Positions 47,849 to 57,382 of a DNA stretch of 64,000 nucleotides are shown here, piece by piece. Under the pieces are notes generated by a model, which saw only the letters and a list, made by a program, of their open reading frames with translations, made no database searches and had not been told where the DNA came from. The position numbers and the translations under genes were made by a program. The first letter of the stretch is position 1. Every line of letters begins with the position of its first letter. This DNA is from Thermoleophilaceae bacterium (GTDB lineage: Bacteria; Actinomycetota; Thermoleophilia; Solirubrobacterales; Thermoleophilaceae): assembly GCA_036378175.1 (NCBI GenBank), contig DASUWY010000014.1, forward strand, positions 62,001 through 126,000, written 5' to 3'.

Positions 47849-48250
47849 ATGGCGACGCACTTTTACATCGAGATCCATCCGCTCGACCATGGGGTGACCG
47901 AGGTCAGGCTGTTCGGCGACGCGGACCTCGCGGTGGCGCCGGAGCTGCAGGAGAAGATGGACGCCCTGATCCGCGAGCAGAAGACGCGGCTGCTGATCAA
48001 CCTGACCGAGCTGCGGTTCATCGACTCGACCGCACTCGGCACGCTGCTGCACACGGCGCGCCACGCTCGGCGCAAGCGCGGCCGGGTGGCGGTGGTCTGC
48101 CCCGATCCCGCGATGCGCGGGCTGTTCGAGCTCGTGGGACTGAACCTCATCTTCCCGGTGGAGGACTCGACCGACAGGGCGCTCGCGCACCTCGTGTCAC
48201 GCCGGCGCTTCAAGCGCCGCTCGGCATCCCCGCCGGCCGAAGCCCCCTAG
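47849..48250 (+). CDS. STAS-domain anti-sigma-factor antagonist
   Basis: The 133-residue protein has the SpoIIAA-like STAS fold: VTEVRLFGDADLAVAPELQE early and the phosphorylation loop LRFIDSTALGTLL, where Ser is the site normally phosphorylated by an RsbW/SpoIIAB kinase. Unphosphorylated antagonists bind the anti-sigma factor and free the sigma factor. No kinase or sigma gene is adjacent. The last 20 residues are basic and Pro-rich. It overlaps the convergent response regulator by 4 bp. Confidence 0.88.
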   Translation: MATHFYIEIHPLDHGVTEVRLFGDADLAVAPELQEKMDALIREQKTRLLINLTELRFIDSTALGTLLHTARHARRKRGRVAVVCPDPAMRGLFELVGLNLIFPVEDSTDRALAHLVSRRRFKRRSASPPAEAP

Positions 48251-48858
48251 CCGATCAGGCCGAGTTCCTGCGCCTGCCGCACCGCCTCCGCACGGTTGCG
48301 GACGCTGAGCTTTCGATACACGGCGCTCGTGTGCTCCTTCACGGTGTGTGGCGAGAGAAAGAGCCGCTCCGCGATCTCACGGTTGGTCGCGCCCGTGGCG
48401 ATCAGGTCGAGAACCTCGCGCTCGCGCGCCGACAGCTGCGCCGGCGCCGCCACAGCCTGCTCGCGCTGCGGCCGGAACACGGTCATCCCCATGCCCACCA
48501 TGCGCACGGCCTTGGCCACGTCGTCGGCGTCCCAGTCCTTTGACACGAAGCCGGACGCGCCCGCGGCGCGCGCCACGTGCTGCGACATCCGCCCGGCGCC
48601 CGAGATCAGCAGCACCCGCGTGCGCGGTGACTCGCGCCTGATCGTCTCGCACAGCTCGGCGCCGGACTGGTCGCCGAGGAAGAGATCCACGAGCGCCACC
48701 TCGGGCTCGTACCGGCGCACCAGCTCGAGGGCGTCCCCGGAGTCACGCGCGGTGAGGCAGCGCTCCACCCACGGCTGCTGCCCAAGCAGCAGGCGGAAGC
48801 CCCACTGCACCACCTCGTGGTCGTCCACCACGAGCACGCTGAAGCGGTTCTTGCTCAC
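48247..48858 (-). CDS. NarL/LuxR-family response regulator
   Basis: From GTG 48858 the 203-residue protein has a receiver domain (VLVVDDHEVVQWGFR with the acidic pocket, VALVDLFLGDQSG with the phosphoacceptor Asp, SKDWDAD with the conserved Lys) and a LuxR helix-turn-helix (LSAREREVLDLIATGATNRE; SPHTVKEHTSAVYRKL). Its start overlaps the stop of the kinase gene (GTGA), so the pair is a cognate two-component system. Confidence 0.92.
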   Translation of the reverse strand: MSKNRFSVLVVDDHEVVQWGFRLLLGQQPWVERCLTARDSGDALELVRRYEPEVALVDLFLGDQSGAELCETIRRESPRTRVLLISGAGRMSQHVARAAGASGFVSKDWDADDVAKAVRMVGMGMTVFRPQREQAVAAPAQLSAREREVLDLIATGATNREIAERLFLSPHTVKEHTSAVYRKLSVRNRAEAVRQAQELGLIG

Positions 48859-49958
48859 AGCGGCACCACCAGCCGCGTGCGCCAGCGCCCGGCGTCGGCC
48901 GCGCCGAACTCCACCACGCCGCCCACCTGCAGCGCCTCGAGCGACGCCAGCCGCAGCCCCATCCCCGTGCCGGACGACTGACCGTTCACGCCGTCGTTCA
49001 CGACCTCCACCGAGAACGTGTCGGCGGACAGCTTCACGCGCACCTCGATCGCGCTCGGAGACGCATGGCGCACGGCGTTCCGCAGCGACTCCCCGAGCAC
49101 CGCCTGCGAGAGCGGCTCGAGCCTGGGCGGCACCTCGGAGTCGCCGTCCCATTCGATGGACACGGGAACGTCGGCGTAGCCCTGCTCGAGCCGGCCCAGC
49201 TCCTCGCGCAGCGTCGTGCCGGTGCTGCGGGGTCGCGGAGAGAGCGTGCGCTCGAGCGCGGTGCGGAGGTCGGCCAGCGCCTCCCGCATCTCGCTGCGGC
49301 AGCGCTCTCGATCGGCGGCCTCGAGCTCCACCTCGGAGCTGAGCACGAGCGACACGCCGAACAGCCTGTGCATCACGCGCTCGTGCACCTCGCGCGCGAG
49401 CTCGATCCGCTCGTACAACCTCCGGGCGCGCTCCTGCTGGCGCGTGGCAATCCGCGCGCTTGCCGCGAGCGCGGCCAGCTTGCCGAGCGACCACATCGTG
49501 TGCCGCTCGTCATCGGTGAGCTTGAACCGTCCGCCGCCGCGGTCGGCGAAGATCACTCCGAACCAGCGATTGGCCGCCGACAGCGGCGTGCACGTGAGCG
49601 TGGTCACCTGGAGCGCGCCCTTGTAACGCGCGGGTATCTCGTGCGCGAGCTGCTCCGGCGTGAGCTCCTGAACCTCGTCGAGCGCGAGCGCGCGCTGCGC
49701 GACGGGTGTCTCGTCGAGCGTTCCGTGCACGTCCACGAGCAGGGACGCGTCGATCCCGTGCGAGCCGGCGGCCACCACGCGCGCGAGCGAGTCGTCGTAG
49801 AGCATGAGCACCGCGCGGCGCATCGTCGTGAGGCGGCAGAGCGCCTCGCACAGACGGTTGTAGAACTCGCCGGGCTCGGTCTCGCTCTCGATCCCCGAGA
49901 ACAGCTCGACGAAGACGTCGAGCGTCTCCACCTGGGGCGAGAGGACTCCGTTCCCCAT
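48855..49958 (-). CDS. GAF-domain NarX-type sensor histidine kinase
   Basis: From ATG 49958 the 367-residue soluble protein has an N-terminal GAF domain (about residues 15-170), a HisKA_3-like dimerisation helix (ELAREVHERVMHRLFGVSL, with the presumed phospho-His in VHER) and a HATPase domain (ESLRNAVRHASPS as N-box; GMGLRLASLEALQVGG as G2). The usual DxxxQ after the His is altered (ERVMHR), so autokinase activity should be checked. No membrane segment is seen; the GAF domain probably senses a cytosolic signal. The frame is open upstream to 50108 but without support. Confidence 0.85.
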   Translation of the reverse strand: MGNGVLSPQVETLDVFVELFSGIESETEPGEFYNRLCEALCRLTTMRRAVLMLYDDSLARVVAAGSHGIDASLLVDVHGTLDETPVAQRALALDEVQELTPEQLAHEIPARYKGALQVTTLTCTPLSAANRWFGVIFADRGGGRFKLTDDERHTMWSLGKLAALAASARIATRQQERARRLYERIELAREVHERVMHRLFGVSLVLSSEVELEAADRERCRSEMREALADLRTALERTLSPRPRSTGTTLREELGRLEQGYADVPVSIEWDGDSEVPPRLEPLSQAVLGESLRNAVRHASPSAIEVRVKLSADTFSVEVVNDGVNGQSSGTGMGLRLASLEALQVGGVVEFGAADAGRWRTRLVVPL

Positions 49959-49990
49959 ACGTGGACGGTACCCGGGGCGACGGCCGGCGA

Positions 49991-50266
49991 CTAGAGCGCC
50001 ACCAGCTCCGGCTCGGGCCGGGGCGTGGGATCGAGTGGCCGGCGCTCGTGCAACGCGAGCCGGAGTGCCTGCATCTGCCCGAGGAAGACGGTGCGCGTGT
50101 GGCCGCACTCAGCGCATACGCAGTCCACGTGCGACTCGTAGTCGTCCGTCGCGCTCAGGTGCCAGTCCACATGTCCCGACAGGCACACCGGGCAAGCGAG
50201 CGACGCGGCCACGAGGCAATCCTGGTCGTGCGCGCGGAAGGCGGCTGTCTCGTCGTGGCGGGCCAT
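49991..50266 (-). CDS. Small zinc-ribbon protein
   Basis: The 91-residue protein from ATG 50266 has CPVCLSGH and, 21 residues later, CVCAECGH, two CxxC pairs spaced like a zinc ribbon, followed by TRTVFLGQ. It has no other recognisable domain. It lies 32 bp upstream of the kinase gene in the same direction and could be in the same transcript. Function unknown. Confidence 0.72.
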   Translation of the reverse strand: MARHDETAAFRAHDQDCLVAASLACPVCLSGHVDWHLSATDDYESHVDCVCAECGHTRTVFLGQMQALRLALHERRPLDPTPRPEPELVAL

Positions 50267-51548: not shown

Positions 51549-52844
51549 TCAGGTCACGTAACCCTCTTCCTTCTCGATGCTCTCGCCCTTGTGCGCGAGT
51601 ACGAACTGCACGCTGGACCGAAGCCAGCGAGCGCCACCGCGGACGGTGGGAACGCCCTCATCGTTGAGGACGTCGGCAATCGCCTGGAGCGTCATGCCGC
51701 TCGCACGCATGGAGCGGATCCGCTCGAGGAGCTCGGAGCGCTCCTTGACGGCGCGGCGGCGCGCGCCCGCCGGCTGCTCGGAACCGGCCAGCGACATCAG
51801 CACGCGCGCCACCAGCCTCCCCTCCGAGGAGCTCGTGTCGAGGCCGACGTCGAGCGCGGTGAGCGCAACCCCGGTGTACATGAACCACCCGAGCACAACG
51901 CGCAGCTCGGCCACTGAGGACACGAGGTGCGTGAGACGATGCACGACGAGCCTGGATGCCCTTCCCTCGCTCAGCTCCCCGAGCGCGTAGGTCAGGCCCG
52001 ACTGCCCCAGTGGCTCGCCGCTCTCCGTGCCGGAGTCGCGCACGAGGACCGCGAGCCTCCACCCCCGGTCCGCGCACGCCGCGCGTATCGCCGCCTCGTC
52101 GGGCGCCCCGGAGCGCGGATCGTCGCTGCTCACGTAACCAAGCACCACCTCCTGCGCCGGGAGCTCCAACGGAACGGGTTGGCTCGGCGAGTCATCGGAA
52201 CGCCTCGCCCGAGCGGCGAGGACGAGCGTGAGCGTGGCGGCCGCGGACATCGCGGCGGCAATCGCGCCGATGACCAGAAGGAGCCATGGCGACGGGCCGT
52301 GAGCGGCGGCGTGCCTCTCCGGTGGGCGGAGCTGGCCGGCCGGTACCGCCGGGTGCCGCATCGATCCCGCCGCTGCTCGGGTCTTCGCGTGTGTCGTGCC
52401 GGCATGGGTGAACCCATGCGGATCGAGCAGCACGGCGAGCGTCGCCGCTGCCACGACGCCCGTGGGACGTAATCCGTGCTTGATCTGGAACCACTGAACC
52501 GCCGAGCGCGTGAGTGGCCCGTAGAGCCCGTCGACCGGCCCGGTGTGGTACCCGAGCAGCGTGAGCCGCCGCTGCACCTCGCGCACCCGTTCCGACGGGC
52601 GCCGGTATCCGCTGCCGTAACGCACGGCGCCGGCGCTCCAACCGACGGGATATGTGGCACCAGCAAGAGAGCGCGGGTCAACCGGCTGATGCGGATGCCG
52701 GATCGGCCTGCCGTTCCACCCCGTCCATGGGAGCGGGCGCGGGTTGGCCGATGCCGCGCTGTAGGCTGCCGACGCCGAGGCTGAGCCCGTGAGCAGCGCG
52801 CACAGCGCTACAGCCAGCAGCAGCACCCCCTTTATCGCCTGCAT
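51549..52844 (-). CDS. Peptidoglycan-binding / transmembrane / degenerate serine-recombinase fusion protein
   Basis: The 431-residue protein starts with a signal sequence (IKGVLLLAVALCALLTGSASA). A PG_binding_1 domain follows (about residues 85-140: VREVQRRLTLLGYHTGPVDG; SAVQWFQIKHGLRPTG), then a Pro/His-rich linker and a transmembrane helix (about 190-213, WLLLVIGAIAAAMSAAATLTL). The cytosolic part resembles a serine-recombinase catalytic domain (about 230-355) and recombinase DNA-binding domain (LQAIADVLNDEGVPTVRGG). The catalytic Arg motif, normally RLDRLxR, reads RLTHLVSS, so recombination is unlikely. AGGAG precedes the ATG. A membrane-anchored cell-wall sensor that binds DNA is one reading. 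Confidence 0.8.
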   Translation of the reverse strand: MQAIKGVLLLAVALCALLTGSASASAAYSAASANPRPLPWTGWNGRPIRHPHQPVDPRSLAGATYPVGWSAGAVRYGSGYRRPSERVREVQRRLTLLGYHTGPVDGLYGPLTRSAVQWFQIKHGLRPTGVVAAATLAVLLDPHGFTHAGTTHAKTRAAAGSMRHPAVPAGQLRPPERHAAAHGPSPWLLLVIGAIAAAMSAAATLTLVLAARARRSDDSPSQPVPLELPAQEVVLGYVSSDDPRSGAPDEAAIRAACADRGWRLAVLVRDSGTESGEPLGQSGLTYALGELSEGRASRLVVHRLTHLVSSVAELRVVLGWFMYTGVALTALDVGLDTSSSEGRLVARVLMSLAGSEQPAGARRRAVKERSELLERIRSMRASGMTLQAIADVLNDEGVPTVRGGARWLRSSVQFVLAHKGESIEKEEGYVT

Positions 52845-52928: not shown

Positions 52929-53969
52929 TTAGCCAGGCCGCTCGATCAGGGAGACGAGCGCGACCGACCGCCAGCGAAGCGGCGCGGCGCGGAGCTTGCT
53001 GAAGCACATGACAGCGGTGGCCAGCAAGCCGATGAGCACGGCGAAGACGGTTGAGGTTCCCGATCCCGAGGACGAGGCGCCGGCAGGGACCGCGCCAGGC
53101 TGTTCCGGAGCGAACCCGAGAGGCGCTCGAGGCGGGCCGGCGCTCGACGGGGCGTGAGGGCGCTGCGCCTTCCCTGGTGCCGCGGACCCGCCGCCGACAG
53201 CGGTGACTTGCGCCCTCAGCTTGAAGGGGCCGGCCCCGAGCGATGGGAGGACCGACACCCGACCGGTCACATCCGCGCGCCGGGAAGCGGCACCGTGCGC
53301 CGGCCCACGGACGGACGTGTTCGAGGAACGCGAAGTGGGCGCCTCGCTCGCGGGAGTCTTGGTCCGAGTGGTGGGCACACGACCGGCGATGCTCTGCCCC
53401 GGCGAAGGCGAAGAGCGGGCAGGCGCGCCTGGTTGGGCTGCCACGACGGGCCGCGGGACGATCGCGGTCACCGCCTTCCGCGGGGCGCGCGTCACGGTGC
53501 CCGTTGTCGAAGTCACGGTCGCGGCGGCTCGACTCGCGATCCTCTGGACCGCGGACGCCGGGGCCGCGGGAGGTGGCGGCACCGTCGCTGTGGACGGAGC
53601 GACGGACGCGGCGGTGGAGGAGACCGACTGCGTCGTGGACTTCACCGCGGCCGACGCCACGGACGCCACCGAGTGGACGGTCGAAGTTGTCGAGCCCGCT
53701 GCCGAGGCCGCCGGAACCGTGGACCCGCTGTTCGAGACGGGCGGCTGCGCCGGAGCCGCAGCGCTCGGCGGAACGGATGGGACGGACGGGACGGAAGCCC
53801 GGACCGGAGCGGGCGCCGCGCTCGTCACCTGGGCGGTGACCGTCGCCGAAAGATCGGCCGCCGCCGGGGCGGCGCCCATCACCGCGAGCCAGACGAGCGG
53901 GAGCCCCACGAGCGCGAGCGCCACTTTGCGGGGGACCGGCGGTTCGTGTTCGTGGCGCCTGCTGGACAT
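52929..53969 (-). CDS. Exported Ala/Ser/Thr/Pro-rich protein with C-terminal membrane anchor
   Basis: From ATG 53969 the 346-residue protein has a signal peptide (VALALVGLPLVWLAVMGAAP), a low-complexity Ala/Ser/Thr/Val/Pro-rich middle of about 250 residues that should span the cell wall, and a C-terminal hydrophobic helix (STVFAVLIGLLATAVMCFSKL, in part) with a short basic tail. No enzymatic domain is seen. It is transcribed toward the peptidoglycan-binding fusion gene, 84 bp away. A hairpin (AAGCCCC 52904-52910, GGGGCTT 52924-52930) covers its stop codon. Confidence 0.72.
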   Translation of the reverse strand: MSSRRHEHEPPVPRKVALALVGLPLVWLAVMGAAPAAADLSATVTAQVTSAAPAPVRASVPSVPSVPPSAAAPAQPPVSNSGSTVPAASAAGSTTSTVHSVASVASAAVKSTTQSVSSTAASVAPSTATVPPPPAAPASAVQRIASRAAATVTSTTGTVTRAPRKAVTAIVPRPVVAAQPGAPARSSPSPGQSIAGRVPTTRTKTPASEAPTSRSSNTSVRGPAHGAASRRADVTGRVSVLPSLGAGPFKLRAQVTAVGGGSAAPGKAQRPHAPSSAGPPRAPLGFAPEQPGAVPAGASSSGSGTSTVFAVLIGLLATAVMCFSKLRAAPLRWRSVALVSLIERPG

Positions 53970-54060
53970 CCATTTCCCCTGTCTGCAGTGGAGTCCGCTA
54001 CCACTTCTGCGGTATCCGTAGCACGAGGTTGAAAACGGGCAGATCGTGCTATCCCACACC

Positions 54061-54087
54061 AAAAAAGCCGCAAATTGCGGCTTTTTT
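54061..54087. terminator. Bidirectional intrinsic terminator
   Basis: Six A, then GCCGCAA-A-TTGCGGC, then six T form a textbook hairpin with U-tracts in both directions. It follows the carboxylase gene that ends at 54105 on the minus strand and separates it from the exported-protein gene starting at 53969. Confidence 0.9.
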
Positions 54088-55816: not shown

Positions 55817-57382
55817 ATGAGCCGTTCCCGCGTGGCCGTCCTTCTCGGCGTTGTGATCGCGATCGCGTTCGCCGCGCCCGCGGTGGCCAAGAAGAAGCAC
55901 GTGAAGGTGAAGATCGACGTGGTGACGATGGTGCGCCGCGCGCTGCACATCGCGGAGCGCTCGGACAACAACGCGCGCACGGCGCTCACCAACCCGGTGG
56001 ACTCCGCCCGCATCGTGGACGGCGCCGTGACAGGCTCCAAGCTCGGCGTGGGCTCCGTGTCGTCGGGGAACGTGATCGACGGGACGATCGGCCCGCCCGA
56101 CCTCGCGGACGGCGCGGTGACCACCTCCAAGCTCGCGGACGGCTCCGTAACCGCATCCAAGCTGGCGCCCGGCGCTGTGAGCGGGGCCACCCTGGCGGAC
56201 GGCTCGGTGACCTCCGCGAAGATCGGGAACGGCGAGGTGAAGAACTCGAACCTCGCGGCGAACGCGGTGAAGAGCGGCAACATCGCCGACGGCGAGGTGA
56301 ACACCACGGATCTGGCCGACGACGCCGTGAGCGGCAACAAGATCCTCGACGGCACCGTGGGGAACGCCGACCTCGGCACCGATGCCGTGAAGAGCGGCAA
56401 CATCCTCGACGGCGAGGTGAAGACCGCGGATCTTGCGGGTGACGCGGTGACGAGCGGCAAGATCCTGGATGGTGAGGTGAAGAACGCCGACCTCGCCACC
56501 GACGCGGTCACCAGCAACAAGATCCTCGACGGGACGATCGGGAACGGCGACCTCGGGACCGACGCGGTGACGAGCGGGAAGATCCTCGACGGCACCATCG
56601 CGGGCGCCGACCTCGCCGGCAACTCCGTGACGAGCGCCAACATCGTCGACGGCGAGGTGAAGAACGCCGACCTCGCCCCCGACGCCGTGACCAGCGCCAA
56701 GATCCTCGACGGGACCATCGCGGGCACGGACCTCGCGCCGAACGCGATCGGGTCCGGCCAGCTCGGCACCGGCTCGGTGAACAGCGCCGCGATACTCAAC
56801 GGCACGATCACCGGCGGCTCGGGCGGCGACATCGCGCCGAGCACGATCGACGGGACGAACATCGTGCCGGGCTCGATCAACACGAACCAGCTCACCGACG
56901 ACGCCGTGACCAACGCGAAGCTCGGGCCCAACGCGGTGCTCTCGTCGAACATCCTCAACGGCGCCGTGAACACGGGCGACCTTGCGGACGACGCGATCAC
57001 GAGCGCGAAGATCCTCGACGGCGAGGTGAAGACCGCGGACATCGCCGCGAACGCCGTGACCGGGAGCAAGATCCAGGACGCCAGCCTCACGAGCGCCGAC
57101 ATCGCCTCCGACAACGGCTCCGGCAGTCCGATGGTCGGCAACGCCGCGATTTCGCCGGGCACGATCAACAACGGGGAGTGCGTGGTGCTCAGCGCTCCGG
57201 TCACCGGAATCGCGAACGGCGATCACGTGATCCTCAGCGTGCCCACCTCCTTCCCGCAGGGCCTCACCGCCGAGTCCGCCCCGGGCGCCACGGGCGCGCT
57301 GCAGGTGCGGGTGTGCAACGTCAGCGCGAGCCCGATCACCGACGCCGGCTCGTACACCTTCGGCTACCTGGTGATCCACTAG
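55817..57382 (+). CDS. Exported decapeptide-repeat protein (predicted beta-solenoid)
   Basis: The 521-residue protein has a signal peptide (VAVLLGVVIAIAFAAPAVA). From about residue 58 to 430 it carries some thirty-odd ten-residue repeats of the type ADLATDAVTS and NKILDGTIGN, giving a 20-residue (60-bp) supra-repeat in the middle. The regular L/I-x-x-x-x-V/I spacing predicts a right-handed beta-helix. A C-terminal domain of about 70 residues (CVVLSAPVTGIANGDHVILS) has two Cys. Such proteins may be structural surface fibres. A 4-bp gap to the next gene suggests an operon. The antisense frame is also open, a by-product of repeat codon bias. Confidence 0.85.
   Translation: MSRSRVAVLLGVVIAIAFAAPAVAKKKHVKVKIDVVTMVRRALHIAERSDNNARTALTNPVDSARIVDGAVTGSKLGVGSVSSGNVIDGTIGPPDLADGAVTTSKLADGSVTASKLAPGAVSGATLADGSVTSAKIGNGEVKNSNLAANAVKSGNIADGEVNTTDLADDAVSGNKILDGTVGNADLGTDAVKSGNILDGEVKTADLAGDAVTSGKILDGEVKNADLATDAVTSNKILDGTIGNGDLGTDAVTSGKILDGTIAGADLAGNSVTSANIVDGEVKNADLAPDAVTSAKILDGTIAGTDLAPNAIGSGQLGTGSVNSAAILNGTITGGSGGDIAPSTIDGTNIVPGSINTNQLTDDAVTNAKLGPNAVLSSNILNGAVNTGDLADDAITSAKILDGEVKTADIAANAVTGSKIQDASLTSADIASDNGSGSPMVGNAAISPGTINNGECVVLSAPVTGIANGDHVILSVPTSFPQGLTAESAPGATGALQVRVCNVSASPITDAGSYTFGYLVIH
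55988..57105 (+). repeat. Tandem coding repeats (30/60-bp period)
   Basis: DNA repeats underlie the decapeptides; units such as gacgcggtgacgagcggcaa recur with synonymous changes, most regularly between about 56300 and 56760, where the period is 60 bp. The array probably grew by slippage or unequal recombination. It is protein-coding, not a CRISPR array. Confidence 0.8.

What the first reader, a model, noticed from the sequence alone, without database searches (positions are those of the whole stretch)
51549..52844. Cell-wall-binding domain joined through the membrane to a degenerate serine recombinase
A signal peptide, a peptidoglycan-binding domain, one transmembrane helix and cytosolic resolvase-like plus recombinase DNA-binding-like domains lie in one protein. 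The catalytic Arg motif is lost (RLTHLVSS for RLDRLxR), so the cytosolic part may bind DNA or protein without cutting. The topology is that of a receptor connecting the wall to the chromosome. I know of no described function for such an architecture.
Basis: partly seen in the sequence, partly recalled or inferred. Interest (0 to 1): 0.75.

Follow-up and report, generated by a model that had tools for sequence, protein, structure and literature searches.

The report
Wall-binding transmembrane protein with dead recombinase
A soil-type actinobacterium and its relatives carry a membrane protein that should grip the cell wall outside and holds a disarmed DNA-cutting enzyme with a preserved DNA-binding end inside; it is probably a switch that reports the state of the cell wall to genes, and it is usually encoded next to a second, undescribed surface protein.

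Summary
The ORF (minus strand, 52844..51549, 431 aa) has a signal peptide, one PG_binding_1 domain, one transmembrane helix with positive charge on the C-terminal side, a serine-recombinase-like domain and a recombinase helix-turn-helix. AlphaFold2 gives a serine-recombinase fold (Z 16 to TP901-1 integrase). Catalytic S10, R8, R45, R68 and R71 are all lost. It is the only Resolvase-family (PF00239) match in its genome. It is not a one-off: 11 such fusions were read in 10 Solirubrobacterales genomes of three families. Active-site residues decay across them, while the helix-turn-helix, where present, is better conserved than the resolvase domain. In 8 of 10 fusions with upstream sequence, the preceding gene encodes an exported low-complexity protein with a C-terminal TM that ends exactly in ERPG. 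Sister proteins with the same wall-binding/TM part carry TPR repeats instead, often followed by a LuxR-type response regulator gene. Most likely it is a one- or co-component transmembrane regulator that uses a dead serine recombinase as DNA-binding output. DNA binding, sensing and targets are inferred, not shown; three fusions lack the helix-turn-helix. New variant of a known kind (transmembrane transcription regulators).

The parts
51549..52844 (-). Fused protein, 431 aa: signal peptide - PG_binding_1 - TM - dead serine-recombinase domain - recombinase HTH
   Evidence: homologues
52767..52844 (-). Signal peptide (residues 1 to about 26; cleavage after an ASA-type motif inferred)
   Evidence: hydropathy 6-24, KD 2.08; cleavage site by eye
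52428..52595 (-). PG_binding_1 domain, residues 84-139
   Evidence: Pfam PF01471 E 1.3e-16
52215..52283 (-). Transmembrane helix, about residues 188-210
   Evidence: KD 2.14 at 190-208; 3 K/R within 15 residues after, 1 before
51774..52148 (-). Degenerate serine-recombinase (resolvase) domain, residues 233-357; S10, R8, R45, R68, R71 lost
   Evidence: Pfam E 2.8e-10; residue table; fold Z 16.1 to 3bvp
51594..51743 (-). Recombinase-type helix-turn-helix, residues 368-417
   Evidence: Pfam PF07508; conservation 0.77 against 0.55 for the resolvase part in the dead set
52929..53969 (-). Upstream partner: signal peptide, A/P/S/T/V-rich low-complexity region, C-terminal TM, short tail ending ...VSLIERPG (ATG at 53969 taken as start; the longer TTG ORF starts at 54062)
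   Evidence: same gene order in relatives
52932..52946 (-). Codons of the invariant C-terminal IERPG; the only match of this pattern in the window's own genome
54019..54051 (.). Perfect 8-bp dyad TAGCACGA-N17-TCGTGCTA upstream of the two-gene unit; candidate operator, weak
   Evidence: 0.07 dyads of arm 8 or more expected in the 210-base stretch; not shared by relatives
54061..54087 (.). Terminator-like hairpin (AAAAAAGCCGC...GCGGCTTTTTT) separating the unit from the carboxyltransferase gene
   Evidence: sequence read directly; not listed by the consensus scan

Best explanation
It is a single-pass transmembrane regulator of the cell envelope. Shown by sequence: export signal, wall-binding-type domain, one TM helix, and a cytosolic serine-recombinase fold that has lost its active site but keeps the recombinase helix-turn-helix. 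Inferred: the outer domain binds peptidoglycan; the dead recombinase domain serves as a dimerisation scaffold; the helix-turn-helix binds promoter DNA from the membrane; and the state of the wall, together with the co-encoded ERPG-tailed surface protein, changes dimerisation or DNA binding and so the transcription of envelope genes. That would make it a one-component, or with the partner a co-component, system.
For: Domain order and topology. Recombinase fold. Loss of catalytic residues in the window and in the relatives tabulated, with HTH conservation 0.77 against 0.55 for the resolvase domain; a set of intact recombinases shows the reverse, 0.59 and 0.69. The window gene is the only PF00239 match in its genome, so no cutting partner subunit is visible. 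11 fusions in 10 Solirubrobacterales genomes. The upstream ERPG gene is present in 8 of 10 with upstream sequence. Modular swap: sister proteins with the same PG-binding/TM part carry TPR repeats, a short tail or another tail, and in 7 of 11 the next gene is a receiver-LuxR response regulator; in 0 of 8 ERPG-linked fusions is it one (Fisher p 0.013). So the DNA-binding output seems to come either as a separate protein or fused. A separate dead recombinase follows an ERPG gene directly in G235. The fused set is rejected as one clade (p-AU 0.013), so fusion or separation happened more than once.
Against: No DNA binding, target gene or signal was shown. 3 of 11 fusions (G021 second copy, G010, G415) lack the HTH, so it is not indispensable. 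G368 keeps S10, R45, R68 and R71 and loses only R8 and D67 of the catalytic residues tabulated. No shared operator was found upstream of relatives. The window copy is on a long branch (1.5 changes per site), and its last residues depart from the family's GYxRP ending. The Fisher test treats related loci as independent.
Confidence: 0.5

Rival explanations
1. Physical wall-to-chromosome tether: the same protein binds DNA at a few or many sites to anchor the nucleoid to the envelope, without regulating transcription.
For: Topology and retained HTH. Dead serine recombinases could still pair DNA sites (from established knowledge of resolvase synapsis). No conserved neighbour apart from the ERPG gene.
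Against: Patchy distribution, 10 of 232 genomes of the order; a structural anchor would be expected to be broader. The swap with TPR proteins followed by response regulators points to signalling. Some members lack the HTH.
Confidence: 0.18
2. Protein-protein scaffold: the cytosolic part no longer binds DNA; like the TPR repeats of sister proteins, it docks a cytosolic partner or the ERPG tail and helps organise the surface protein.
For: 3 of 11 fusions lack the HTH. The resolvase slot is exchangeable with TPR repeats. The tail ERPG is the same whichever module follows.
Against: The HTH is the best-conserved part of the cytosolic region where present, more than in the intact recombinases compared.
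Confidence: 0.2
3. The window copy is a decaying fusion without function.
For: Long branch; every tested active-site residue gone; no match in the other genome of the genus, which is only 88% complete.
Against: Open 431-codon frame with normal codon composition in every domain. Operon with the ERPG partner is intact, and relatives with 52-56% identical N-terminal parts keep the same arrangement in three genomes of another family.
Confidence: 0.08
4. A membrane-tethered, still active recombinase.
For: G368 keeps S10, R45, R68 and R71.
Against: The window protein has none of the five tested catalytic residues; S10 is lost in 9 of the 10 fusions tabulated. No other PF00239 match in the genome could complement it.
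Confidence: 0.03

Closest known systems
Transmembrane transcription regulators (TTRs; PMC10269533), e.g. CadC/ToxR type
   Same: A DNA-binding domain and at least one TM region in one protein; a single TM is the most prevalent form.
   Different: Here the signal peptide and sensor come first and the DNA-binding part is C-terminal. The output is a dead serine recombinase with its HTH, and the sensor is a peptidoglycan-binding domain. The words recombinase, resolvase and peptidoglycan do not occur in that paper's main text; its supplementary domain list was not read.
Co-component systems VtrA/VtrC, ToxR/ToxS (PMC9214523)
   Same: Two membrane proteins from one gene cassette, one carrying a cytosolic DNA-binding domain.
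   Different: The partner here is a low-complexity surface protein with a cytosolic tail ending ERPG, not a lipocalin-like sensor as far as sequence shows; the genes are separated by 84 nt rather than overlapping. Complex formation not shown.
Serine recombinases (resolvases, TP901-1 and phiC31 integrases)
   Same: Same fold and a recombinase-type HTH.
   Different: Active site lost; exported N-terminal wall-binding part and a TM helix added.
YneA/YneB operon of Bacillus subtilis
   Same: From memory: a LysM cell-wall protein (the division inhibitor YneA) next to a resolvase-like protein (YneB). That the two share an operon is stated in PMC6051672. A relative (G026) hits the YneB model weakly (24.7 bits, cut-off 175).
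   Different: Separate proteins, different wall domain, SOS-controlled; the window protein itself does not hit that model.

Membership tests
Transmembrane transcription regulator (TTR) | DNA-binding domain present | tested here: met
   PF07508 Recombinase 22.0 bits, cut-off 21.1, covering its first half. By homology only; binding not tested.
Transmembrane transcription regulator (TTR) | At least one transmembrane region | tested here: met
   KD 2.14 at residues 190-208
Transmembrane transcription regulator (TTR) | Controls transcription from the membrane | not testable with these tools
   needs ChIP-seq and a deletion strain
Serine recombinase | Serine-recombinase fold | tested here: met
   AF2 pLDDT 81; 3bvp Z 16.1, rmsd 2.3 over 122 residues
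Serine recombinase | Catalytic serine and arginines (S10, R8, R45, R68, R71) | tested here: not met
   D, S, Q, H, S in the window protein
Co-component signal transduction (VtrA/VtrC-like) | Two membrane proteins encoded together, one with a DNA-binding domain | tested here: met
   ERPG gene directly upstream in 8 of 10 fusions with upstream sequence
Co-component signal transduction (VtrA/VtrC-like) | Obligate heterodimeric sensor | not testable with these tools
Co-component signal transduction (VtrA/VtrC-like) | VtrC-type lipocalin-like sensor partner | tested here: inconclusive
   the partner is low-complexity with no Pfam family over its cut-off, but its structure was not predicted

The most novel reading that the evidence does not exclude
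A previously undescribed class of envelope signalling: a wall-gripping transmembrane protein whose output is a domesticated, catalytically dead serine recombinase, working together with a surface protein of a new family marked by an invariant cytosolic C-terminal ERPG. The wall-binding sensor is modular, with the DNA-binding output either fused (dead recombinase) or supplied by a neighbouring response regulator.
Probability: 0.4. Interest if true: 0.78.

Novelty: new variant of a known kind. Interest (0 to 1): 0.62.

Why it matters
It would be a clear case of a DNA-rearranging enzyme turned into a membrane-bound regulator, and a direct one-protein route from the cell wall to the chromosome in a large, mostly uncultured group of soil actinobacteria. 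It also opens a testable question: what reads an invariant C-terminal ERPG on otherwise unalignable surface proteins.

Tried and rejected
Close relatives in genome contigs and viral contigs by the single sequence: none. A shared operator upstream of the units: no dyad or word shared beyond close relatives; a promoter-like TTGATC...TAGGCGT is shared only by some PG-free dead recombinase genes. The intact recombinases found by the first homology search (L008, L009, L012) are ordinary soluble proteins and not evidence for the fusion. The Ig-like gene downstream is probably a separate unit, with a TTGACA-like box in the gap (by eye; the consensus scan found no promoter). Literature: no paper found for the architecture. 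The extra beta-rich domain between TM and recombinase in G026, G021 and G416 was modelled (pLDDT 64) but not pursued; the window protein lacks it.

Full report
What was checked. The ORF lies on the minus strand, 52844..51549. Pfam finds PG_binding_1 (84-139), Resolvase (246-357) and Recombinase (368-417, just above its cut-off). Hydropathy gives a signal peptide and one TM helix, with positive residues following the helix, so the recombinase part should be cytosolic (inference from the positive-inside rule). Codon composition is normal in every domain.

Active site and fold. An alignment with six intact recombinases of the same class shows that the window protein has lost R8, S10, R45, D67, R68 and R71. 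AlphaFold2 on residues 228-431 with four relatives (mean pLDDT 81) matches solved serine recombinases: TP901-1 integrase Z 16.1, rmsd 2.3 over 122 residues, then phiC31, gamma-delta and Tn3. The fold is kept and the catalytic residues are gone. The only match to PF00239 in the window's genome is this protein.

Relatives. Record titles place the relatives in the order Solirubrobacterales, of which 232 genomes are held. The same architecture was read in G026, G021 (two copies), G368, G010, G416, G452, G454, G189, G415 and the window: 11 fusions in 10 genomes of three families. Three of them, from G452, G454 and G189, share the window's N-terminal part (52-56% identity). In a sample of 396 genomes drawn evenly from the phylum, the full-length model matched end to end only in the window's own genome; an ordinary soluble recombinase in one other genome of the same order was the only further hit. 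S10 is lost in 9 of 10 fusions tabulated; G368 keeps S10, R45, R68 and R71. In the dead set the HTH averages 0.77 consensus agreement against 0.55 for the resolvase domain; in the intact set it is 0.59 against 0.69. Both sets are small and differ in diversity, so this is an indication only. Three fusions (G021 second copy, G010, G415) have no HTH.

Tree. The Solirubrobacterales dead domains lie together on one side of a branch with 94/89 support. A second group of dead recombinases in another family of the class (YVRVAPRE type) is separate: all dead rows as one clade is rejected, p-AU 0.004. The fused proteins as one clade are rejected at p-AU 0.013, so fusion or separation occurred more than once; long branches make this less sure.

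The conserved partner. Directly upstream of the window gene (84 nt gap) is a gene for a protein with a signal peptide, a low-complexity region, a C-terminal TM helix and a tail ending VSLIERPG. Genes of this form, alike in sequence only at the C-terminal end, precede 8 of 10 fusions with upstream sequence; G010 and G415 lack it, and G026 is cut by the contig end. They also precede most of the sister proteins described next, with ERPG, ELPG or ADPG tails. In the window's genome the pattern occurs once, in this gene. In G235 an ERPG gene is followed directly by a free dead recombinase.

Modular sisters. The same wall-binding and TM part occurs with TPR repeats, a short tail or another tail instead of the recombinase. 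In 7 of 11 such loci the next gene is a receiver-LuxR response regulator; this was seen in 0 of 8 ERPG-linked fusions (Fisher p 0.013; loci are related, so the p-value is optimistic). The simplest reading is that the DNA-binding output is either supplied by a neighbour or fused.

Mechanism. Shown: export signal, wall-binding-type domain, TM, dead recombinase fold, conserved HTH, conserved partner gene. Inferred: binding of peptidoglycan, DNA binding, signal transfer, cooperation with the ERPG protein. Precedent from established knowledge: Tn3 resolvase represses its own promoters, so serine recombinases can act as repressors. An 8-bp dyad with a 17-bp spacer, of a length suited to a resolvase dimer, lies at 54019-54051 upstream of the unit; 0.07 such dyads are expected by chance and relatives do not share it, so it is only a lead.

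Known kinds. By the definition used in PMC10269533 (a DNA-binding domain plus a TM region) it is a transmembrane transcription regulator by sequence; control of transcription is untested. As a serine recombinase it fails on catalytic residues. It resembles co-component systems (PMC9214523) in having two membrane proteins encoded together, but a complex is not shown.

Noticed in passing
L045, L046, L048, L053, L055, L056, L172, L201, L202, L203, L212, L217, L221, L093, L095, L096; window 52929-53969: A family of exported low-complexity proteins with a C-terminal TM and a short tail ending exactly in ERPG (variants ELPG, ADPG). Only the tail is conserved. Often followed by a wall-binding protein, including a LysM-like plus PG-binding protein in L221.
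   Followed up: partly
L069, L073, L080, L085, L060: Other ERPG-tail genes are followed by secreted, repeat-rich proteins (N/Q/S/A/G repeats) with no Pfam match among those tested; similar secreted repeats lie next to free dead recombinases in L049 and L050.
   Followed up: partly
L054 8154-9119, L205 7056-8009, L206 7026-7964: A second probably membrane-tethered dead recombinase type, with a hydrophobic N-terminal region in place of the PG-binding domain; in L054 and L206 it lies beside a GGDEF-EAL-like gene.
   Followed up: partly
L031, L032, L034, L035, L036, L037, L040: Small soluble recombinase-like proteins (YVRVAPRE type), with S10 to A and R71 to Y in those tabulated, in another family of the class: an independent loss of catalysis.
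   Followed up: partly
L053, L055, L056, L057, L089, L093, L101: Response regulators of receiver-LuxR type directly downstream of wall-binding TM proteins, with no histidine kinase seen next to them.
   Followed up: partly
window 48247-50108: A GAF histidine kinase and a LuxR-type response regulator on the same strand, beyond the Ig-like gene downstream of the finding; a link to the fused protein is possible but untested.
   Followed up: no
window 55817-57382: Exported protein made of many short repeats (DGTIGNGDLGTDAVTSGKILDGEV type), no Pfam match.
   Followed up: no
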